Source: Planctomycetota bacterium
GTDB taxonomy: Bacteria > Planctomycetota > Phycisphaerae > SM23-33 > FEN-1343
Direction: 5' to 3'
DNA length: 38,454 nucleotides
NCBI GenBank assembly: GCA_012514895.1
Contig: JAAYZK010000078.1
Location: 1 to 38,454, forward strand
Made by a program: the position numbers and the translations under genes. Position 1 is the stretch's first letter; every line of letters starts with the position of its first letter. A model generated the notes under the pieces. The model had not been told where the DNA came from and made no database searches. It was given only the letters and a program-made list of their open reading frames with translations. This document shows positions 4,041 through 16,286 of this stretch, piece after piece.

Positions 4041-5252
4041 ATGAGCGTCGTCGAGGACTACATCCGTGGGACGGATCTCCTGGTGCGGGGATCCTATATC
4101 GAGGCTGAGAGGGTACTTGCGCCGATCGCCCGAGGCGGTGGGCTGGTGGGTCGCTTCGGCCGCTACTACCTGGGGCGCTGTCTGCGGGCCCAGGGTGTCG
4201 CCGCAGCCGCGGCAGGCGCCCCGGCCGAAGCCGCCGCCGCCGTCCGACGTGCCGCCGAACTGCTCGGGGGCCGGGCGGATCTGGCCGGCTACCTGGCCGC
4301 CCTGTACGCGCGTCACGTGGACAGTGCCCACGAGCGGGCGGCCGACGAGGAAGAGCAGGCCCGCCTGCGGGCGATCGCCCAGGGGCGGCAGGGGCGGGCG
4401 ATGGAGGCCCTGTCGACCCTGAGGACGGCCCTCTGCGCCCACCCGCAATCGGCGCCGCTGCACCTGGCGGCCGGCATGGTGCTGGCAGCCCAGGACCGGT
4501 TCGACGAGGCGGCCGGGCAGTTCCAGCTCGCCACGCAGTGCGACTGCGCCTGCGCCGAGGCCTACCGCCGGCTGGGGCACTGCCGCGCCGCCGAGGGCCG
4601 GTTCGACGAGGCGCTGGGCCTGATCCGGCGGGCCCTGTCCATCGATCCGGGCGACCTGACGCTGATCCGCGAAACGCTGACGGCGGCGCGGGCGGCCGGC
4701 GCGGCCGTCGTGCTGCCGGCGGAGGTGGGGGCTCCGCGCGAGGAGGACCTCCGACGGCTGGCCGCGCTGGTGCTCGGCGAGACCGATTTCGTCCAGGCGC
4801 TGCTGGCGCTGCCTGCGGCGGCGGCTGACGGGGAGATCTTCGGCGTTCTGGCGCTGGTGATGGACCTGGTCCTGGCCCATCACGACGACTATGCGGACAT
4901 GCACTACCGCGCGGCGCTGGTGCAGCGCCGGCTGGGGCGGCGCGAGGCGGCGCTGGCGCACGCCGAGCGGGCCGTCGCGCTCAACGACGGCTACGTCCAG
5001 GCGCGTTTTCTGGCCGGGTCGCTCCTGGTGGACTGCGATCCGCGGGCGGCGGCCGAGCATCTGCGGCGGGCCGTGTCGGCCGGAGGCGACTGGGCCGACG
5101 TCCACGCGACGCTGGGGGCGGCGTATCAGCGGCTGGGGCAGTCCCAGGACGCCCGGCGCGAGATGGCCCGATCGCTTCAGATCAACAGCAACTACACCCC
5201 GGCCGCCGAAGCGATGGCGCGGCCGGCGGGTGATCGCAACGGAGGCAGGTGA
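4041..5252 (+). CDS. TPR repeat protein
   Basis: Multiple TPR-like units (e.g. AEAYRRLGHCRAAEGRFDEALGLIRRALSIDP); GGAGGG upstream of ATG. Confidence 0.85.
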   Translation: MSVVEDYIRGTDLLVRGSYIEAERVLAPIARGGGLVGRFGRYYLGRCLRAQGVAAAAAGAPAEAAAAVRRAAELLGGRADLAGYLAALYARHVDSAHERAADEEEQARLRAIAQGRQGRAMEALSTLRTALCAHPQSAPLHLAAGMVLAAQDRFDEAAGQFQLATQCDCACAEAYRRLGHCRAAEGRFDEALGLIRRALSIDPGDLTLIRETLTAARAAGAAVVLPAEVGAPREEDLRRLAALVLGETDFVQALLALPAAAADGEIFGVLALVMDLVLAHHDDYADMHYRAALVQRRLGRREAALAHAERAVALNDGYVQARFLAGSLLVDCDPRAAAEHLRRAVSAGGDWADVHATLGAAYQRLGQSQDARREMARSLQINSNYTPAAEAMARPAGDRNGGR

Positions 5253-5253
5253 G

Positions 5254-6909
5254 GTGAGTCATCTTCTGGAACTGCTGGGTCGTGGGCTGGAGGGCACGCT
5301 GGGCGAGACCCTGGAGCGGTACTTCTGGACGGTGGGGACCGCCCGGATGGAGGACCTGATCCAGGCCGCCGCCGATCACCCGGCCTACCCCGACGTTCAG
5401 TGCCGCCTGGGGACGGCCTACCTGCGCGGGGGGAAGATCACCAAGGCGATCGAGCACCTGCGGCTGGCCTGCAAGCACAAGCCCGACTTCCTGGCCGCCC
5501 GCATGGCCCTGGCGTCGGCGCTGGAGGAGGCCGGCCAGCGGGAGGCGGCCCTGGACCAACTGGTCTGTGCCGCCCACACCCATCCGGGGGAGGCGGCCAT
5601 CAGCTTCGCGATGGGCTACCTCTACGAGAGGCTCGAGCGGACCGACGAGGCCCGCCAAGCCTACATCGAGGCGATCCGGATCAGCCCCGACCTGGCGTCG
5701 GCGCGCCAACGGCTGGCGGCGGTGGCCCTGCTGACCGACGATGTCGAGACCGCCCTGGAACAGTACCTCTGGCTGGTCGAGGAGGATCCCGGCGACAGCC
5801 GTCTGCGCACGACCCTGGCCCAACTGCACTACCGCAACGGGCAGTACGACGAATCGGTGCGCCAGTACGAGTCGACGATCGCGCTGGAACCGGAGAACTG
5901 GTCGCTGGCCGACGAGTTCGTCGAGGCCCTGGTCGCCGACGGGCAGATCCGCGAGGCGATCGAACGGCTGGCGGCGATGCTGGCCGACCAGGGGGACTTT
6001 CCCGACCTGCACGTGCGCATGGCCGACCTGTACAGCCAGTGCGGGGAGGACGACGCGGCCCTGTGGCACTACCACAAGGCGCTGGACATCCAGCCGAACT
6101 ACCTCGAAGCGCACGTGAAGCTGGGCACCCAGCACCTGATCAACGGCCGATGGTCCGAGGCCTCGGAGGCCTTCACCGAGGCGATCGAGCTGAATGACCA
6201 GCTCCTGGCGGCCTACGTCGGGCTGGGCGTGGCCCAGGACGCCGCCGGCGATCCGGTGGGGGCGATGGGCAGCTTCGACCTGGCCGCCGCGATCGACCCC
6301 AACAGCACGCTGCTGATGCGGGAGATGTCCCGCCTGCACCTCAAGAGCGCCCTGGAGGTCCACGCCGCCGGGCAGCGCCACGCCCCGCCCGGCGACCCCG
6401 AAGCGCCGTCGCTGCAGGGCGAGGACCTGCTCAAGCTCCAGCTCCGCTGCCACCGCGAGCAGGTGGAGAACGAACCGCCCCAGCCGGACCTGCTGTACCG
6501 CTACGGGGTGCTGCTCCGCGCCGAGGGACGCCTGCACGAGGCCCTCGAGCAGTTCGACCGGGCGATCGCGCTGAACCCCGTCTACACCCAGGCCATCATC
6601 AAGCGCGCCATCACGCTGCAGGACCTCGACCGCCGGGCCGAGGCGGCCGCCGAGTTCCGCCGCGCCCTGGACCTCGAACCCCAGTACGTGGACCTGCACT
6701 ACCGGCTGGGCCTGATGCACACCGACGGGCGGCGGTTCAGCAAGCTCGTCGAGGAGACCGCCGCCTCCGCCGGCGAATCGAGCGAGACCGTCCGCTCCAG
6801 GATCGCCCTGTCCCTGCAGTCGATGGGCCTGATGGACCGCATCGCGGCGACCTGGCGCAGCCTCCAGAAGACGTTCCGGACGGCCCTGGAGACCTCCCGC
6901 AAGCCCTGA
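5254..6909 (+). CDS. TPR repeat protein
   Basis: GTG start at 5254 (VSHLLELLGRG...) with GGAGG at 5241; repeated TPR units (e.g. LLYRYGVLLRAEGRLHEALEQFDRAIALNPVYTQA). Starts 1 nt after the previous stop. Confidence 0.85.
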   Translation: MSHLLELLGRGLEGTLGETLERYFWTVGTARMEDLIQAAADHPAYPDVQCRLGTAYLRGGKITKAIEHLRLACKHKPDFLAARMALASALEEAGQREAALDQLVCAAHTHPGEAAISFAMGYLYERLERTDEARQAYIEAIRISPDLASARQRLAAVALLTDDVETALEQYLWLVEEDPGDSRLRTTLAQLHYRNGQYDESVRQYESTIALEPENWSLADEFVEALVADGQIREAIERLAAMLADQGDFPDLHVRMADLYSQCGEDDAALWHYHKALDIQPNYLEAHVKLGTQHLINGRWSEASEAFTEAIELNDQLLAAYVGLGVAQDAAGDPVGAMGSFDLAAAIDPNSTLLMREMSRLHLKSALEVHAAGQRHAPPGDPEAPSLQGEDLLKLQLRCHREQVENEPPQPDLLYRYGVLLRAEGRLHEALEQFDRAIALNPVYTQAIIKRAITLQDLDRRAEAAAEFRRALDLEPQYVDLHYRLGLMHTDGRRFSKLVEETAASAGESSETVRSRIALSLQSMGLMDRIAATWRSLQKTFRTALETSRKP

Positions 6910-6977: not shown

Positions 6978-8813
6978 ATGGACGGCGAACGGTTTAACAG
7001 CGCGCTGCTCGCTCTGCTGGGCCGCACGGACGGGACCGCAGCGCAGCGAGCCTTGATCCAGGTGCTGCAGGCGGCCCGGGGGCCCGCGCAGCTCGACGCC
7101 ATGCGCCGCCTCCTGGCCCGCAACAACGGCTTGGCCACCGCCGCCGTCGGCCGATGCCTCACCCGCCTGGATGCTCCCGCCCAAGCGGCCCTGCTCGACG
7201 ATCCGGCCCTGCTGGAGCCGGTGGCGCGGTCGGCGCTCCACGACGACGACGAGGCGATCCGCCTGGCGTCGATCGCCATGATCGTCCAGGCCCGCCGCCC
7301 CAGCACCGCCTACCTGCTGGTGGGGGCCCTGGGCGACCGCTCCGAGGCGGTCCGCCGCGGCGCCGGCGAGGCCCTGCTGGGCCTGCTGCGCGCCTTCGGC
7401 GAGGATCCTGCCGTCATGGAAGCCCACCTGGTGCCGGCGCTGACGGCCGGCCTGCGGAACCTGGCGGCCCACCGCTGTGAGGCGATGCTGGCCGCGGCCG
7501 TGCTGCTGGGGCGGCGGTGCGGACGCGACGTGATCGACCGGATCGACAGCCCCGCCAACAAGCTCACCGGCCCGCTGGCGGCCCTCCTGCGCGAAATGCC
7601 CGCGCCCCAGTGCGCCGACTTCGTGATCCGCACGCTGCCCTGGCAGCACGCCGGCAGCGTCGCCCGCGCCTACGTCGCCTCGGCGCCCTGGCCGACCCTT
7701 GCGGCGCTGGGGGCGGCCGACCACTGGCGGCTGCTGGCGCCGGTGCGGGCGGCGATGGCCGAGATCCGCCACGTCCGCTGCGCCGCCGACGACCCGGCGG
7801 GCCTAGCCGATCTGAGCGACGCCGAACAGGCGGCGGCGCTGCGGTTCGTCCTGGCCTGCGGGATCGCCCCGCAGGTCCGCCGGACGCTCCTGGGCGAGGC
7901 GCTGGGGGCCGGGCCCTCGGCGGCCCTGGTTGCCGCCGGCGCCATCGTATCCGAGGCCGGCGAGGAGGCCGACGGGGTGCTCATGGCCCTGCAGAGCCCC
8001 CATCCGGACGTCCAGGCGGTTGCCGCCGCCCGCCTGCTGGCCTGCCGGACCGACGCGCACGTCACCGAGCACCTGCTGAAGGTCCTGCCGGCCCTGTCGG
8101 CGCCGGTCGCGGCGGTGGTGGGGCAGTACCTGGCGGTCCGCAGCTTCAACCGGTACTGGTCGAGCTACGCGCGGCTGGACCACGAGATCCGCCAGACCGC
8201 CGGGCGGGCGCTGCTCAAACTCGACGCGGGCGTCGCCGACCTGCTCGCCGCACGCCTGCTGGGGCGGGACGTGAACGTGCAGATGCAGGCGCTGCAGATG
8301 ATCCGCCAGCTCCGGATGGCCGCGCGGTACGCCCCGCACCTGGCGCGCCTGGCCCGCCAGGGCGACGGGCGCGTGCGGTCGGCCTCGGCGGCGGCCCTGG
8401 GCGGCGCCGAGGGCGCCGACGTGCGGCGGACGCTGGCGCGGTGCCTGGACGACGGCGATATGCGCGTCCAGGCCAACGCCGTCGAGGCCATGGCCCGCCT
8501 GGGCGGCGACCCCTCGGCGGTGCTGGACAAGCTCGACAGCCCCAACAACCGGGTGCGGGCCAACACGATCAAGTGGCTCCTGGAGGCCGCCCATCCCCAG
8601 GGACCCATGGCGCTGGCGGCCATGCTCGCCGACAGCCGTCCCGCCCACCGCATCAGCGCCCTGTGGGTGGTCCAGACGCTGGCCTACCAGCCGGCCGTGG
8701 GGCTGCTGCGACGGCTGGCGCTGTCCGACGGGGACACCAAGGTCCGCTCCCGCATGGCCACGGTGCTGCGGGACCTGGCGCCGGCGGGGGCGGTGGAGGT
8801 GACGCGGGGATGA
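6978..8813 (+). CDS. HEAT-repeat protein
   Basis: Repeated helical units with HEAT/PBS-lyase character (e.g. DVRRTLARCLDDGDMRVQANAVEAMARLGGDPSAVLDKLDSPNNRVRANTIKWLLEA). Confidence 0.8.
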   Translation: MDGERFNSALLALLGRTDGTAAQRALIQVLQAARGPAQLDAMRRLLARNNGLATAAVGRCLTRLDAPAQAALLDDPALLEPVARSALHDDDEAIRLASIAMIVQARRPSTAYLLVGALGDRSEAVRRGAGEALLGLLRAFGEDPAVMEAHLVPALTAGLRNLAAHRCEAMLAAAVLLGRRCGRDVIDRIDSPANKLTGPLAALLREMPAPQCADFVIRTLPWQHAGSVARAYVASAPWPTLAALGAADHWRLLAPVRAAMAEIRHVRCAADDPAGLADLSDAEQAAALRFVLACGIAPQVRRTLLGEALGAGPSAALVAAGAIVSEAGEEADGVLMALQSPHPDVQAVAAARLLACRTDAHVTEHLLKVLPALSAPVAAVVGQYLAVRSFNRYWSSYARLDHEIRQTAGRALLKLDAGVADLLAARLLGRDVNVQMQALQMIRQLRMAARYAPHLARLARQGDGRVRSASAAALGGAEGADVRRTLARCLDDGDMRVQANAVEAMARLGGDPSAVLDKLDSPNNRVRANTIKWLLEAAHPQGPMALAAMLADSRPAHRISALWVVQTLAYQPAVGLLRRLALSDGDTKVRSRMATVLRDLAPAGAVEVTRG

Positions 8814-9229
8814 GGCTGCTGGCCAACATCATGACCGAGGACAACCCGTGGATGGAGACCTTCGCCAGGGGCATGCGCAACTGGTCGCCGGTCTCGCCGG
8901 TGCCGGCGTTGATCATCTTCGGCCTGGTGGCGGCGATCGTGATCGTCTGCCTCGTGTGGTGCTCGATCCGCCGGCAGCGCCGCGCGCCGGGCCCCCGCAT
9001 CCTGCTGGGGCGGGCGGGGCGGCTGCTGGGACTGTCGCCCGCCCAGCGCCGCTGCCTGATGCGCCTGGGGCGCCAGGCCGAACTCGAGCCGGCCGCGGCG
9101 CTGGTCAGCCCCCGGATGATGATGGAACTGGTCGGCCGCGCCGAGGCCCGCCGGGGCAAGCTCGGCGCCGACGACGCGCGGCAGGTGGCAGGCATCCTCG
9201 ACATCGTCACGGCGGCGTGCGACGGGTAG
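8810..9229 (+). CDS. Small single-TM membrane protein of unknown function
   Basis: ATG overlaps the HEAT gene stop (ATGA); one TM segment (VPALIIFGLVAAIVIVCLVWCSI) then a basic cytoplasmic-like region. Confidence 0.65.
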   Translation: MRLLANIMTEDNPWMETFARGMRNWSPVSPVPALIIFGLVAAIVIVCLVWCSIRRQRRAPGPRILLGRAGRLLGLSPAQRRCLMRLGRQAELEPAAALVSPRMMMELVGRAEARRGKLGADDARQVAGILDIVTAACDG

Positions 9230-9264
9230 GCCGTCCGGGGTCCGGCAACTCACCCTCCAAGCAA

Positions 9265-9296
9265 ACGGCCCCGACGCGTTGCCGCGCCGGGGCCGT
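9265..9296. terminator. Hairpin between convergent genes (possible bidirectional terminator, no clear U-tract)
   Basis: ACGGCCCCG...CGGGGCCGT, 9-bp arms. Confidence 0.4.
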
Positions 9297-9320
9297 GGGG
9301 GTCGTCGGAGGAAGTTTCGC

Positions 9321-10715
9321 TTACGGTTCGAGCACCTCGGGGCTGTACCCGATGAACGACATGAACTGCCGCTCGTTCAGGATCGGCTTGTTGAACCGCA
9401 TGGCGATGTCCTGGGTGCGTTCGTAGGCGTCGGCCTGCTGCTGGTTCTGCTGCCACAGCGTCATCTGGGTCGCCGGGGCGTCCGGCGCCGGGCGGGAGGC
9501 GCGGCGGGGAGCCTGGCCCATGACGACGTAGTCGGTCTGGACGCTGATCTCGTCGACGATCGAGCCGCCGAAGCGGGCGATCATGTTGCGGACGGCGTCG
9601 AGGCTGTCGTCGTCAGGCTGGCCGTCGTTGTTGAGGTCGAAGTAGCCGACGATGTAGAACTTCGGCTGCGTGACCGTGCTGAAGGCGATGTTGGCGATCA
9701 GGTCGCCCTCGACGATCGGCTCGCCGGGCGCCTGGCGGACGATGTGGCACTCGGCGATGCTGTCGCGGACGTTCTTGACGATGATCCGGCCCTTGCTCTG
9801 GCCCTCGGCGCTGACGCCGGTCTGCTTGGCATAGACGCTGAAGGGCAGGCCCACGCGGATGTTGTTCCTGCGGCCGAGGCTGATGTAGACCAGGTCGTGC
9901 TCGGGCAGCACCTGGAGGATCTGCCCGTCGGCCTTCAGCTCGGCCTCCGGGCCGCGCTTCTCGCCGGCGACGATGCCTTCCAGTTCGGCCACCCGGGTCG
10001 TCAGGTCGCGGACGGTCTTCTCGAGGCCGCGGATCTCCGTCTCGCGGGTCGACAGGGTGCCCTGGAGGTCGCGGACGCGGCCTTCCCAGTCGCTGTTGGC
10101 GGCGGCGACGCGCTGGTCGTAGCTGCCCGAGAGCGTCTCGAGTTTGGTCTGCAGGGCGGCCAGTTCGGTCTTGGCCTCATCGAGCTGCCCGGTCAGGATC
10201 CTCCCGGCGTCGGCGGCGTCCCGGCGGGCCTTCTCCAGGTCGGCGGCGAGGGTGGCGTTCTGGGCCGCCAGCGATGCCTCGTGCTCCTTGGCCGCCATGT
10301 ACTTGGCGCCGACGCGATCGAGGATGTTCAGCACGCCCTGGATGGTCGTCTCCTCGGGGTGGGCCGCGTCGAACGCCTGCTGGGCCGCCTCGATCTGGGC
10401 CAGGGCCTCTTCGACCTTCATCCCCTGGCCGGCGGACGGCCCGGCCAGGCCGACGATGAAGCTCTGGATGTCCGCCTGCATCTGCCCGACCGCCGAGCGA
10501 CGGCCGGCGCGGGCCTTCGTGGCGGCCATCGACTCGTTGTTGCGCTCCGAGGGGCTGGCCAGACCCACGAGCGTCTCCTCGGACTTGGCCAGTTCCTTGA
10601 CCTTGGTCTGCCAGCCGTTATAGAACAGGCCGGCCAGGGCGGCCGAGACGAAGAACAGGAAGACGAACAGGATGGTCAGGTACGGCGGGCCGCTGCGCTG
10701 GACCACACGTGCCAT
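9321..10715 (-). CDS. Membrane-anchored coiled-coil protein with C-terminal BRCT-like region
   Basis: SD aaaggag upstream of ATG 10715; N-terminal TM (YLTILFVFLFFVSAALAGLFY), long coiled coil, then FYIVGYFDLNNDGQPDDDSLDAVRNMIARFGGSIVDEISVQTDYVVMGQAP...RTQDIAMRFNKPILNERQFMSFIGY. Confidence 0.75.
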   Translation of the reverse strand: MARVVQRSGPPYLTILFVFLFFVSAALAGLFYNGWQTKVKELAKSEETLVGLASPSERNNESMAATKARAGRRSAVGQMQADIQSFIVGLAGPSAGQGMKVEEALAQIEAAQQAFDAAHPEETTIQGVLNILDRVGAKYMAAKEHEASLAAQNATLAADLEKARRDAADAGRILTGQLDEAKTELAALQTKLETLSGSYDQRVAAANSDWEGRVRDLQGTLSTRETEIRGLEKTVRDLTTRVAELEGIVAGEKRGPEAELKADGQILQVLPEHDLVYISLGRRNNIRVGLPFSVYAKQTGVSAEGQSKGRIIVKNVRDSIAECHIVRQAPGEPIVEGDLIANIAFSTVTQPKFYIVGYFDLNNDGQPDDDSLDAVRNMIARFGGSIVDEISVQTDYVVMGQAPRRASRPAPDAPATQMTLWQQNQQQADAYERTQDIAMRFNKPILNERQFMSFIGYSPEVLEP

Positions 10716-10993
10716 GCGACAACTCCTTTACTGGCTAGAGTTCGACGGTCGCGACCGGTGAGCGAGGCTTGGGGTGGCGGGAGGTAAACACAAGCGACAT
10801 CGCAACATCCGCCAAAGCTCCCACGGTCTGTCTGCCCCGGCGCCCCAGCGGGACGGACCCAATGCATCTTCGACGCCGGAACGCAGACCAAGTATCTTTC
10901 CAGGCCCCCCGCGAGTCAACAAGTTTTTTGGCCCCGATGGCTTGGGCATCCGTTGACCGGCCGCCGCCGTCGCGATAGCCTCTCGGGGAAACC

Positions 10994-13726
10994 ATGGCCC
11001 AGACCCTCTACATCATCGACGGGCACAGCCAGATCTTCCGGGCATACTACGCGCCCTTCCGCGATCTGACCAGCCCCGCCGGCGAGCCCACCCGGGCCAC
11101 GTTCGTCTTCACCACCATGCTGCTGAACCTCATCGAGCAGCGCCGGCCCGACTACCTGGTCATGGCCATGGACTCGCCCCGCCAGTCGCTGTGGCGGTCG
11201 GAGGTCTACCCCCAGTACAAGGCCCACCGCGACGAGGCCCCCGAGGACCTGATCGTCCAGGTCGGGCGCATCGAGCAGATCGTCCGGGCCATGGGCATCC
11301 CCCTCTGGCGGGGCGGGGGGCAGGAGGCCGACGACTACCTCGCCTCGGCCGCCGCCCAGTGGGCCGGCGAGGACCTCGACGTCGTGCTCGTCAGCAGCGA
11401 CAAGGACCTCGAACAGGCACTCGGCGAGCACGTGGCGATCTACGACCCGGCCAGGGATGAGATCCTCGACCCGGCGGCCCTGGAACGGCTCAAAGGCTAC
11501 CGGCCGGACCAGGCCATCGAGATCCAGACCCTCACCGGCGACAGCACCGACAACATCCCCGGCGTCAAGGGCATCGGCCCCAAGACCGCCGCCAAGCTCA
11601 TCGCCGCCTACGGCACGGCCGCCGCGGTGGTGGCCCACGCCGACCAGCTCACGCCCAAGCAGCGCGAGAACGTGCTGGCCTTCGCCGACCGGATGGACCT
11701 GACGCGCCGGCTGGTGTCGCTGCGGACCGACGTGGAGCTGCCCGACCCGCTGGAACGCTGCCGCTGGTCCGGCGTGCCCGCCGCCGCCGTCGCGCCGATC
11801 TTCCGCGAACTGGGGTTCGCGCGGCTGACCGAGAAGTTCGAGCAGCACCCCGGCGGAGGCGAACCGCCGCCGGCGACGGCGACCTCGCCGGCCGCGCCCG
11901 GCGAGCCGACCACCGCCGCGGATTTCGGCCATCACCTGGTCGACAGCGCCGAGGCCCTCGACGCGATGCTGGCCGCCTTCGCCGCCTCGGGCGCCCGGCG
12001 CCTGGCGGTGGACACCGAAACCACCTCCACGCGGCCCATGTGGGCCGAGCTGGTGGGCATCTCGCTGGCGTGGAGCGGCCTCGAAGGCTACTACCTGCCG
12101 GTGCGCGGCCCCATGGGCGCCGTGACGCTCGACGTGGACCTCGTGCGGGCGAAGCTCGGCCCTCTCCTGGCCGATCCGGCCGTCGCGAAGGTGGGCCACA
12201 ATCTCAAATACGACGCCATCGTCCTGGGCCAGGCGGGCATGGAGCTGGAGGGCATCGCCTTCGACAGCTACCTGGGCGCCTACCTGCTGGACGCCTCGGC
12301 CGCCGGCAAGCTCGACAACGTCGCGATGCGCGAACTGAACCACCGGTGCATCCCCATCACCGACCTGATCGGCACCGGCGCCAAGGCGATCGGCATGGAC
12401 CAGGTCTACCCGGCCGACGTGGCGGTGTACGCGGCCGAGGATGCGTATATCTCCTACCGGCTGGCCGACACGCTCACGCGGCGGCTGGACGCCGAGGGGC
12501 TGGCCGACCTGCTGGAGCAGATCGAACTGCCCCTGCTGAGTGTCCTGGTCCGCATGGAGCGGGCCGGGATCCGCCTGGATCCGCAGGTGCTCAAGCGCCA
12601 GGAGATCGAGCTGGACAAGAAGGCCGACCAGCTCCGCTCGCACATCCTCGACCTGGCCGGCGAGCCGTTCAACCCCGACAGCCCCCGGCAACTGGCGGCG
12701 ATCCTTTTCGAAAAGCTGGGCCTGTCGGTCCTCCGCTCGACCAAGACCGGCCCGTCGACCGATGCGTGGGTCCTGGCCGAACTGGCGGCGATGGGCCACC
12801 CGCTGCCCCGGGCGGTGCTGGACTACCGGCAGTTGACCAAGCTGCTGAGCACCTACCTGCGGTCGCTGGTCGACTGCATCCACCCGCGCACCGGGCGGAT
12901 CCACGCCTCGTTCAACCAGGGCGGGACGATCACCGGGCGGCTCAGCAGCAGCGAGCCGAACCTCCAGAACATCCCCGTACGCACCGACGAGGGGCGGCGG
13001 ATCCGCAGCGCCTTCGTCCCCGGCCGCGACGGCGACGTGCTCCTCTCGGCCGACTACAGCCAGATCGAGCTGCGGGTGCTGGCGCACTTCTGCCGCGATG
13101 ACACGCTGGTGGCGGCGTTCGAGCAGGGGCAGGACATCCACCGCACCGTGGCCGCCGAGGTGTTCGGCGTGCCGGCCGCCGAGGTCACCGACGAGCAGCG
13201 GGCGCGGGCGAAGACCGTGAACTTCGGCATCGTCTACGGGCAGACCGCCCACGGGCTGGCCGCCACGCTGGGCATCGGCCGCGGGGAGGCGCAGGAGTTC
13301 ATCACGAAGTACAAACGCCGTTTTCCCGCGATCGATGCGTTCCTCCACGACTGCATCGAGCAGGCCAAGCGACAGGGGTATGTCCAGACGATCTGCAGGC
13401 GCCGCCGCCCGATTGCCGATATCAACAGCCGCAACAGCGGCCTGCGGCAGGCCGCCGAGCGGACGGCGATCAACTCGGTCGTCCAGGGCTCCGCCGCCGA
13501 CATGATCAAGCTGGCGATGGTGAATGTCGACCGCCGCATCCGTCGCGAGGGGCGGCCCAGCCGGATGCTTCTGCAGATCCACGACGAGCTGGTTTTCGAG
13601 ATGCCCGCCGGCGCCGTCGAGGCGGAGACGGCCATGATCGTGGAGGAGATGGAGTCGGCGATCGCCCTGACGGTTCCGGTGAAGGTGGATGTAGGCGTGG
13701 GGGCCAACTGGATGGAAGCGAAGTAG
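10994..13726 (+). CDS. polA: DNA polymerase I
   Basis: N-terminal 5'-3' exonuclease domain, 3'-5' exonuclease motifs (AVDTETT, VGHNLKYDA, YAAEDAY), polymerase motifs (SADYSQIELRVLAH, RARAKTVNFGIVYG, QIHDELVFE). Confidence 0.97.
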   Translation: MAQTLYIIDGHSQIFRAYYAPFRDLTSPAGEPTRATFVFTTMLLNLIEQRRPDYLVMAMDSPRQSLWRSEVYPQYKAHRDEAPEDLIVQVGRIEQIVRAMGIPLWRGGGQEADDYLASAAAQWAGEDLDVVLVSSDKDLEQALGEHVAIYDPARDEILDPAALERLKGYRPDQAIEIQTLTGDSTDNIPGVKGIGPKTAAKLIAAYGTAAAVVAHADQLTPKQRENVLAFADRMDLTRRLVSLRTDVELPDPLERCRWSGVPAAAVAPIFRELGFARLTEKFEQHPGGGEPPPATATSPAAPGEPTTAADFGHHLVDSAEALDAMLAAFAASGARRLAVDTETTSTRPMWAELVGISLAWSGLEGYYLPVRGPMGAVTLDVDLVRAKLGPLLADPAVAKVGHNLKYDAIVLGQAGMELEGIAFDSYLGAYLLDASAAGKLDNVAMRELNHRCIPITDLIGTGAKAIGMDQVYPADVAVYAAEDAYISYRLADTLTRRLDAEGLADLLEQIELPLLSVLVRMERAGIRLDPQVLKRQEIELDKKADQLRSHILDLAGEPFNPDSPRQLAAILFEKLGLSVLRSTKTGPSTDAWVLAELAAMGHPLPRAVLDYRQLTKLLSTYLRSLVDCIHPRTGRIHASFNQGGTITGRLSSSEPNLQNIPVRTDEGRRIRSAFVPGRDGDVLLSADYSQIELRVLAHFCRDDTLVAAFEQGQDIHRTVAAEVFGVPAAEVTDEQRARAKTVNFGIVYGQTAHGLAATLGIGRGEAQEFITKYKRRFPAIDAFLHDCIEQAKRQGYVQTICRRRRPIADINSRNSGLRQAAERTAINSVVQGSAADMIKLAMVNVDRRIRREGRPSRMLLQIHDELVFEMPAGAVEAETAMIVEEMESAIALTVPVKVDVGVGANWMEAK

Positions 13727-13799
13727 TCGCACGGAAGGGCCTTGCAGTTCTTTCCGCATCGGTCCGCCAAGAGCCGCACCTGGACGAACCTTGAGGCGT

Positions 13800-14417
13800 A
13801 TGAACACCCGGAGACACCCCCAGCCTGTGGTCGGCCTTGTCGGCGGCATCGGCAGCGGCAAGAGCCTGGTCGCTTCCATGCTGGCCGAGATGGGCGGACG
13901 CATCATCGACGCCGACGCCGTCGGCCACGCAGTGCTGAAACGTCCGGAGATCATCGCGGCATTGACCGAGCGTTTCGGGCCCGGCATCCTGGATGCCGCC
14001 GGACAAGTCGATCGGCGACGTATGGCGGGAGTGGTCTTCGAGGATCCCCAGGCCCTGGCGGCGTTGAACGCTGTTGTGCATCCTCCGATGAAACAGGAAT
14101 TTACGGCGCGGATCGCCGCCTGGCGCGCCGAGGCGGGGTTTGACGGGCTGATCATCCTGGATGCGGCGGTGCTGCTGGACACCGACTGGCATGAGCTCTG
14201 CGACGTGGTTGTTTTCGTGGATGCCCCGGCCGAGCAGCGCCTGGCGCGGGTGGCGGGGTCGCGGGGCTGGTCGGCGGCGGAGCTGGCGCGGCGAGAAAAA
14301 AATCAGAAATCTCTGGACTTTAAGCGCTCCCGGGCTCATCATGTAGTGCGTAACAACTCCAGCGAGTCTCGCCTGCGTCAGCAGGTACGCCTGCTTTACC
14401 AAAGCCTCGTCGCATAG
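13800..14417 (+). CDS. coaE: Dephospho-CoA kinase
   Basis: VVGLVGGIGSGKSLVASMLAEMGGRIIDADAVGHAVL P-loop and DAD motif; C-terminal HHVVRNNSSESRLRQQV. Alternative TTG start at 13791. Confidence 0.92.
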   Translation: MNTRRHPQPVVGLVGGIGSGKSLVASMLAEMGGRIIDADAVGHAVLKRPEIIAALTERFGPGILDAAGQVDRRRMAGVVFEDPQALAALNAVVHPPMKQEFTARIAAWRAEAGFDGLIILDAAVLLDTDWHELCDVVVFVDAPAEQRLARVAGSRGWSAAELARREKNQKSLDFKRSRAHHVVRNNSSESRLRQQVRLLYQSLVA

Positions 14418-14714
14418 GATGAAGCGTTTGCCCTGTCCGGCCGGCATGGGGTGAGGCGGGCCAGCCGCTTGGATTCCATGACGTGCCATCTGACCGCGCA
14501 TGACAAAGGAAGATGTCCGAGGTGGTCAGACAGTCCATTGGGTTCGGTTGCCGCGGGAGTGAGGACCGAGCGCCGAGGGGGACTGATCCGGTTCCAGAAC
14601 AGATCATGCTCACCGGCGGGCGTAGGTCCGCCCGGCACGGGAAGGACGGCCGTCGTCGACGGCCCCCGGCCGCGAGCAGGATGCAGTACGTATGTACGCG
14701 CAGAGTTGGAGGTC

Positions 14715-16286
14715 ATGACAGAGACCATGGCAAAAACCGCAAAAACCGCCAAGAAGGCGAGAACCACGAGGAAGTCCGCCAAGAACGACACCGCCCTGGT
14801 CGTCGAGGAGCAGATCCAGGCTGAGCAGCAGCAGCTCGAAGCTGAGCGGCGGCTCGAGGCCGAGCAGGAGCTCGAGGCCGAGCAGCGGCTCGAGGCCGAG
14901 GCTCAGGAGGGCCGGGCCGAGCAGGCCGTCGCGGTTGACGACGATCCGGTCGCCGAGGCGCCCGTCGAAGAAGAGCTGGACAAGCCGATCAAGGACGCCA
15001 CGCAGGCCAAGTACGAGAAGGTCAAGCGGGGCGAACTGCACCTGACGGACCTGCAGCGGATGACCGTGGCTGAACTGCACGACATCGCCAAGCGGGAAGG
15101 CCTCAGCGAGTACACCGGCCTGAAGAAGCAGGACCTGGTGTTCAAGATCCTCAAGGAGCGGATCCACCGCAGCGGCCTGATGTACGGCGAGGGCGTGCTG
15201 GAAGTGCTCCCCGACGGGTTCGGCTTCCTGCGCAGCCCCGATTACGACTACCTGCCCTGCCCGGACGACATCTACGTGTCGCCCAGCCAGATCCGCCGGT
15301 TCGGCCTGCGCAACGGCATCATCATGGCCGGGCAGATCCGCCCGCCGAAGGAGTCGGAGCGCTACTTCGCGCTGCTGCGCGTCGAGGCGATCAACTTCGA
15401 GGACCCCGACAGGCTGTCCGACAAGATCAACTTCGAGGACCTCACCCCGCTGCACCCCGACAAGCGCATCTTCCTGGAGACCACCTCCGAGGAGATCAAC
15501 ATGCGCGTGGTGAACCTCGTGACGCCCATCGGGTTCGGCCAGCGCATGCTGATCGTGGCTCCGCCGCGGACCGGCAAGACCGTCCTGCTCCAGAAGATCG
15601 CCAACGCGATCTCGGCCAACCACAAGGAGGCGTACGTCATCATCCTGCTGATCGACGAGCGCCCCGAGGAAGTGACCGAGATGAAGCGGGCCACCGAAGC
15701 CGAGGTCATCTCCTCGACGTTTGACGAGCCGGCCAGCCGGCACATCCAGATCGCCGAGATGGTGATCGAGAAGGCCAAGCGCATGGTCGAGTACGGCCAC
15801 GACGTGGTGATCCTGCTGGACAGCATCACCCGCCTGGCCCGCGCCTACAACACCGAGATGCCCCACAGCGGCAAAATCCTCACCGGCGGCGTGGACGCCT
15901 CGGCCCTGCAGAAGCCCAAGCGCTTCTTCGGCGCCGCCCGCAACATCGAGGAGGGCGGGTCGCTGACCATCATCGGCACCGCGCTGGTCGATACGGGCTC
16001 GAAGATGGACGAGGTGATCTTCGAGGAGTTCAAGGGCACCGGCAACAGCGAGCTTCATCTCGACCGCCGCCTGGTCGACCGCCGCGTGTGGCCCGCCATC
16101 GACATCAGCCGCAGCGGCACCCGCAAGGAGGAACTCCTGCTGGATCCGCGCGAACTGAAGCTGACCTACCGCCTCCGCAAGGTTCTCAGCGAGATGAACC
16201 CCGTCGAGGCGATGGAACTGCTGATCGGACGCCTCACCAAGCTGAAGACGAATGCCGAGTTCCTGATGTCCATGGCCGTCGACTAG
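14715..16286 (+). CDS. rho: Transcription termination factor Rho with Glu/Ala/Lys-rich N-terminal extension
   Basis: [81 protein letters not shown]. Alternative ATG at 14727. Confidence 0.95.
14832..14903 (+). repeat. Four copies of an 18-bp in-frame tandem repeat ([24 protein letters not shown]) in rho
   Basis: Direct reading of codons: cag ctc gaa gct gag cgg / cgg ctc gag gcc gag cag / gag ctc gag gcc gag cag / cgg ctc gag gcc gag gct. Confidence 0.85.

What the first reader, a model, noticed from the sequence alone, without database searches (positions are those of the whole stretch)
9321..10715. Membrane-anchored coiled-coil protein with a BRCT-like C-terminus and a calcium-loop insertion, divergent from polA
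Seen: FYIVGYFD...LDAVRNMIARFGGSIVDEISVQTDYVVMGQAP then ...RTQDIAMRFNKPILNERQFMSFIGY follows the BRCT pattern (strand-G, helix, GG, TDYLVxG, then A..., IPIL.E..F). An EF-hand/dockerin-like DLNNDGQPDDDS is inserted after the first strand. The N-terminus is a TM plus long coiled coil. Known: bacterial BRCT is mainly in NAD-dependent DNA ligase. Inference: a membrane tether for DNA or a protein partner; adjacency to polA may be coincidental.
Basis: partly seen in the sequence, partly recalled or inferred. Interest (0 to 1): 0.68.

Follow-up and report, generated by a model that had tools for sequence, protein, structure and literature searches.

The report
Conserved planctomycete envelope protein with BRCT
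This gene makes a membrane-anchored rod that carries, most likely outside the cytoplasm, a domain of a kind (BRCT) otherwise known from DNA-repair proteins; it is kept in nearly all of the bacterial phylum Planctomycetota, has no known function, and could be an undescribed part of their unusual cell envelope.

Summary
BRCT is supported by sequence (PF00533 in 32/35 full-length orthologues and 48/66 isolated domains), by an AlphaFold2 model (pLDDT 92) and by Foldseek (RFC1, LigA, Dbf4 on top). The DxDxDGxxD loop is a real insertion between strand 1 and helix 1: near-universal in some clades, degenerate in most of the window's order, absent in a third group. The protein is phylum-wide in Planctomycetota (270/294 genomes at E<=1e-6); 15 genomes of family f52 (probably anammox) carry only LigA's BRCT. 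Adjacency to polA is not coincidental: 16 loci in seven families have it, always divergent, often with coaE and rho. Elsewhere the gene lies by tatC, lpxL or gatB/aspC. DNA tethering is disfavoured: topology predicts an extracytoplasmic C-terminus, FlgT_C is periplasmic in Vibrio, the BRCT is acidic (-6; LigA +6), and the phosphate-pocket Ser/Thr and Lys are not conserved. Best reading: an inner-membrane periplasmic rod presenting a FlgT_C-BRCT head to an envelope partner. Orientation, calcium and partner are inferred.

The parts
9321..10715 (-). whole gene, 464 aa, N-terminal TM - coiled coil - FlgT_C-like domain - BRCT
   Evidence: ORF; orthologues in 37 of 40 relatives; same start peptide MARVVQ(R) in orthologues
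10723..10727 (-). Shine-Dalgarno sequence AGGAG, 7 nt before the ATG
   Evidence: read directly
10891..10919 (-). sigma-70-like promoter TTGACT-17-GATACT reading towards the gene
   Evidence: only promoter-like site in the region, 0.1 expected in shuffles; consensus match only
10623..10679 (-). transmembrane helix, residues 13-31, preceded by basic MARVVQR (N-in predicted)
   Evidence: hydropathy 2.6; N-flank net positive in all 35 orthologues; no other TM
9966..10331 (-). long helix / coiled coil, residues 129-250 (about 18 nm)
   Evidence: AF2 helix H129-250, pLDDT mostly 91-97; heptad periodicity p 0.03
9672..9944 (-). FlgT C-terminal-like beta domain, residues ~258-348
   Evidence: PF16538 in 10 of 35 orthologues, best 6.6e-6; Foldseek FlgT 8z5n and 3w1e, prob 1.00
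9336..9671 (-). BRCT domain, residues ~349-460
   Evidence: PF00533; AF2 pLDDT 91.7, pTM 0.81; Foldseek top hits BRCT; hhalign to own LigA BRCT prob 96.9
9603..9638 (-). DxDxDGxxD calcium-loop-like insertion DLNNDGQPDDDS between strand 1 and helix 1 of the BRCT, residues 360-371
   Evidence: Ca binding itself not tested
9564..9569 (-). BRCT GG motif, G383-G384
   Evidence: nearly invariant in 35 orthologues
9516..9536 (-). BRCT TDYVVMG motif, residues 394-400
   Evidence: D395 nearly invariant, G400 invariant
10994..13726 (+). polA, divergent neighbour, 278 bp away
   Evidence: Pfam DNA_pol_A and exonuclease domains; divergent adjacency in 16 loci
13791..14417 (+). coaE, second gene of the conserved block
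   Evidence: Pfam CoaE; also beside polA or the gene in other families
14451..16286 (+). rho, third gene of the conserved block
   Evidence: ORF; clusters with Rho

Best explanation
A phylum-wide planctomycete envelope protein. The basic N-terminus stays in the cytoplasm and one TM helix anchors it in the inner membrane. A helix of about 18 nm, probably an oligomeric coiled coil, projects into the periplasm and holds a FlgT_C-like beta domain plus a BRCT domain at its tip. The head acts as a protein-interaction module for a partner in the peptidoglycan or outer-membrane layer, making an inner-membrane-to-envelope tether or scaffold. Where the DxDxDG loop is intact, the interaction face is stabilised by calcium in place of the phosphate-binding pocket of nuclear BRCTs. 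Shown here: gene reality, domain anatomy, conservation, synteny, loop distribution, loss of phosphate-pocket residues. Inferred: orientation, oligomerisation, calcium binding, partner and tether function.
For: One TM with a positive N-flank in all 35 order-level orthologues, no other TM (weaker but mostly same-signed in 40 phylum members). FlgT_C-like domain by Pfam and Foldseek; Vibrio FlgT belongs to the periplasmic H-ring (PMC7175336). Ca-loop motif typical of extracytoplasmic proteins (general knowledge), in all 8 f34 members, 3 related sequences, at least 8 of 12 other Phycisphaerae and 5 sequences including the window in or near its order. BRCT acidic (window -6, family median -3; own LigA BRCT +6); Ser/Thr before the strand-1 Gly in 7 of 66, Lys before the helix-2 Ala in 13 of 66. 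Downstream neighbours close by are envelope genes in whole clades: lpxL (7 loci, -19 to 102 bp) and tatC (8 loci). Phylum-wide retention.
Against: Orientation is predicted only; no signal-peptide or topology program was available, and in some phylum members the N-flank is neutral. The most recurrent neighbours (polA, coaE, rho, gatCAB, aspC) are cytoplasmic housekeeping genes. I recall no established periplasmic BRCT. The calcium loop is degenerate in most of the window's order, so calcium cannot be needed throughout. Partner unknown.
Confidence: 0.55

Rival explanations
1. Membrane tether for DNA or a DNA-repair partner: the BRCT faces the cytoplasm and works with PolA, LigA or chromosomal DNA.
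For: BRCT domains are mostly in DNA transactions; divergent polA adjacency is old and recurrent.
Against: Topology predicts the C-terminus outside; FlgT_C neighbour domain; acidic BRCT without conserved phosphate-pocket Ser/Thr and Lys; calcium-loop insertion; many lineages moved the gene away from polA while keeping it.
Confidence: 0.13
2. A specific part of the elongation or division machinery of these bacteria, standing in for or beside MreC/FtsB-type TM-coiled-coil-beta-domain proteins.
For: Same general layout as MreC (TM, coiled coil, beta domain, from general knowledge); phylum-wide retention; divergent division in Planctomycetota (PMC12283558 abstract).
Against: A separate MreC is present in 38 of 40 relatives, so it is not a replacement; no division-gene neighbours seen.
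Confidence: 0.15
3. A flagellar accessory protein, a planctomycete counterpart of FlgT.
For: FlgT_C-like domain is the closest structural match of the middle part.
Against: Three genomes 93-95% complete (G003, G006, G010) have the protein but neither an FlhA-family protein nor flagellin; no flagellar neighbours in 67 loci.
Confidence: 0.04
4. The BRCT resemblance is chance or a different fold.
For: Single-sequence Pfam score is borderline (19.5-22.3 bits); Foldseek TM-scores are moderate (mostly 0.4-0.54) with high rmsd.
Against: 48 of 66 domains hit PF00533, best 5.5e-13; hhalign to own LigA BRCT 96.9%; the family profile recovers LigA in genomes that lack the protein; Foldseek list is dominated by BRCTs.
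Confidence: 0.03

Closest known systems
BRCT domain of NAD-dependent DNA ligase (LigA), PF00533
   Same: Fold order, GG motif, TD(F/Y)VV.G motif, A....IPIL....F ending; profile match
   Different: Not part of a ligase; helix 2 region ~25-30 residues longer; calcium-loop insertion after strand 1; acidic; phosphate-pocket Ser/Thr and Lys not conserved; attached to a TM and coiled coil
FlgT C-terminal domain (PF16538), Vibrio flagellar H-ring protein
   Same: Beta domain with Pfam and Foldseek match; periplasmic in Vibrio (PMC7175336)
   Different: No FlgT N- or M-domains detected by Pfam; found in genomes without flagella; fused to a BRCT
MreC
   Same: Works-like resemblance only: TM, coiled coil, beta domain outside the membrane (general knowledge)
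   Different: No Pfam MreC match; genuine MreC encoded separately

Membership tests
BRCT domain family (PF00533) | Profile match above curated cut-off | tested here: met
   22.3 and 21.9 bits vs 21.3 for the domain, 19.5 for whole protein; 48 of 66 family domains match at E<=0.01, best 5.5e-13
BRCT domain family (PF00533) | beta-alpha-beta-beta-alpha-beta-alpha fold | tested here: met
   AF2 order E9-13 H26-39 (EE42-43) E53-56 H72-97 (EE102-103) H105-111, pLDDT 91.7; Foldseek top hits BRCT, but TM only about 0.4-0.54
BRCT domain family (PF00533) | GG turn and TD-x-V-V-x-G motif conserved in orthologues | tested here: met
Phosphopeptide-binding BRCT | Ser/Thr before strand-1 Gly and Lys in helix 2 | tested here: not met
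   Ser/Thr 7 of 66, Lys 13 of 66
DNA-binding BRCT (RFC1/LigA type) | basic surface | tested here: not met
   net charge -6 in the window, family median -3, 74% negative; own LigA +6. Net charge only, no surface calculation
EF-hand/DxDxDG calcium loop | acidic/amide ligands at positions 1,3,5,9 and Gly at 6, conserved | tested here: inconclusive
   Met in the window and in f34, f75 and many Phycisphaerae, degenerate (DLYGTGR) in about 30 of 34 order-level orthologues; binding not testable here
FlgT (flagellar H-ring protein) | C-terminal domain match | tested here: met
   PF16538 in 10 of 35, Foldseek
FlgT (flagellar H-ring protein) | occurs with flagella | tested here: not met
   present in genomes without FlhA or flagellin: G003, G006, G010
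Extracytoplasmic (N-in, C-out) single-span protein | one TM with positive N-flank | tested here: met
   actual localisation not testable here

The most novel reading that the evidence does not exclude
An extracytoplasmic, calcium-stabilised BRCT: a DNA-repair-type interaction domain moved to the periplasm, where a DxDxDG loop took the place of the phosphate pocket, serving as the head of an inner-membrane-to-envelope tether conserved across Planctomycetota.
Probability: 0.4. Interest if true: 0.75.

Novelty: new variant of a known kind. Interest (0 to 1): 0.55.

Why it matters
BRCT is a standard marker of DNA-repair and checkpoint proteins. A membrane-anchored form that probably lies outside the cytoplasm, conserved through a phylum known for its odd envelope and division, would extend what the fold does and give an untouched candidate envelope component. 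No paper in the held library pairs BRCT with this phylum in a relevant way. About 20% of essential genes in Planctopirus limnophila have no known function (PMC10632474), and orthologues occur in culturable Planctomycetaceae such as Thalassoglobus, so it can be tested in culture.

Tried and rejected
Flagellar accessory: rejected by presence in three near-complete genomes without FlhA or flagellin. MreC replacement: rejected, MreC is separate. Coiled-coil-only similarity to myosin etc. in PDB and Pfam: ignored as composition. Apparent N-terminal extensions in L105, L114 and similar: stop-free upstream frame; internal TM start seen. Apparent matches in f52 and f80: with a profile without the coiled coil they cover mainly the BRCT in 670-720 aa frames, i.e. 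LigA. Disulfide between the two recurrent Cys of the FlgT_C-like domain: they do not co-vary. Rfam: nothing in 9200-11100.

Full report
The observation. The window holds an ORF at 9321-10715 on the minus strand, 464 aa, with AGGAG 7 nt before the ATG and one sigma-70-like promoter (10919-10891) in the polA intergenic region where 0.1 is expected. Orthologues are found in 37 of 40 relatives, with the same N-terminal peptide MARVVQ(R)R..PPYLL.

Anatomy. Residues 13-31 are the only TM helix, with a positive N-flank in all 35 order-level orthologues. AlphaFold2 (35 sequences, pLDDT 80) gives a continuous helix 129-250, about 18 nm if straight, then beta strands and an alpha/beta domain at high confidence. 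Residues ~349-460 are a BRCT: 32 of 35 members by Pfam; 48 of 66 isolated domains, best 5.5e-13; a model of the isolated domain with pLDDT 91.7 and the right element order; a Foldseek list dominated by RFC1, LigA, Dbf4, Rad4, XRCC1 and PARP4; and 96.9% hhalign probability to the BRCT of the same genome's LigA. TM-scores are moderate (mostly 0.4-0.54), probably because helix 2 is extended; this is the weakest point of the fold evidence.

The calcium loop. DLNNDGQPD lies between strand 1 and helix 1, where phosphate-binding BRCTs have their pocket. The pattern D-x-[DN]-x-D-G-x-x-D is near-complete in all eight f34 members and three related sequences (f75, f84), in at least eight of twelve other Phycisphaerae, and in the window, L036, L040, L045 and L053. 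Most of the window's order has DLYGTGR instead, and the remaining 17 phylum sequences have no insertion (f34 counted by eye because the script's search range cut four of them). So the loop is real, but decayed in the window's own order apart from the window and a few others. Calcium binding is inferred.

Not a typical BRCT pocket. Ser/Thr before the strand-1 Gly occurs in 7 of 66, Lys before the helix-2 Ala in 13 of 66. The window's BRCT has net charge -6 (family median -3) against +6 for its own LigA.

Distribution. An alignment search finds 270 of 294 Planctomycetota genomes at E<=1e-6. By my reading of the table roughly 220 are below 1e-20; weaker ones include coiled-coil or LigA cross-matches. 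A profile of the head alone, searched in genomes that scored nothing or weakly, finds in f52 (15 genomes, mostly 99-100% complete) and f80 mainly the BRCT part in 670-720 aa frames, that is LigA. All but one of 80 named relatives have planctomycete titles (one is just 'bacterium'), but that pattern search reaches close relatives only. Presence in other phyla was not tested.

Neighbourhood. Of 67 loci, 16 (families f1, f2, f4, f6, f25, f34, f75) have the gene divergent from polA, gap 97-549 bp by stop-free frames, often followed by coaE and rho; no polA in another orientation was seen beside it. These loci fall in both deep halves of a 75-sequence tree (midpoint root, quick method), so polA adjacency is probably ancestral. 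Where polA lies elsewhere, coaE and rho often stay (L108, L109, L112; coaE also in L118). The other side differs by clade: tatC then cinA, lpxL (-19 to 102 bp), or the gatCAB-[gene]-aspC insertion in most of the window's order. The polA link is therefore old synteny; it does not show joint function.

Mechanism. The most likely reading is an inner-membrane-anchored periplasmic rod with a FlgT_C-BRCT head that binds an envelope partner (confidence 0.55). A flagellar role is contradicted by G003, G006 and G010, an MreC replacement by separate MreC. A cytoplasmic DNA tether remains possible if the predicted topology is wrong.

Literature. Full-text searches for BRCT with planctomycete names gave nothing relevant. 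The P. limnophila essential-gene paper does not mention BRCT in the main text; its tables could not be read.

Novelty. A known fold in a new architecture and probably a new compartment. Interest 0.55: phylum-wide, untouched and testable, but its function is unproven.

Noticed in passing
L053 (G000:C348), 270-1667: A second, divergent copy (28% identity) sits on a 3.2 kb contig of the same genome and does not group with the window copy; paralogue or contaminant (assembly contamination 8.4%), not resolved. GC is similar (71% vs 69%).
   Followed up: partly
L104 7369-10203, L106 5529-7911, L113 4687-7353, L116 7914-10619: Tandem pairs of the gene in families f19, f36 and f63; in the f36/f63 pairs the two copies form separate clades, so the duplication predates their split.
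   Followed up: partly
L095, L096, L097, L098, L100, C-terminal 30-50 residues: Members of f34 carry an extra low-complexity tail after the BRCT with repeated SSGQTS / STGNTS-like motifs.
   Followed up: no
L033, L034, L042, L043, L046, L054 and others: In most of the window's order the gene sits between gatB and an aspartate-aminotransferase-like gene in an asnS-infA-gatC-gatA-gatB run; a lineage-specific relocation.
   Followed up: partly
window 6978-8813 and 4041-6909: HEAT-repeat protein (Pfam HEAT_2) and long TPR-like proteins next to the gene; the TPR pair also lies near the gatCAB-context copies in other genera.
   Followed up: partly
f52 and f80 genomes: Two families of near-complete Planctomycetota genomes lack the full architecture and have only the LigA BRCT; loss or primary absence not resolved.
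   Followed up: partly
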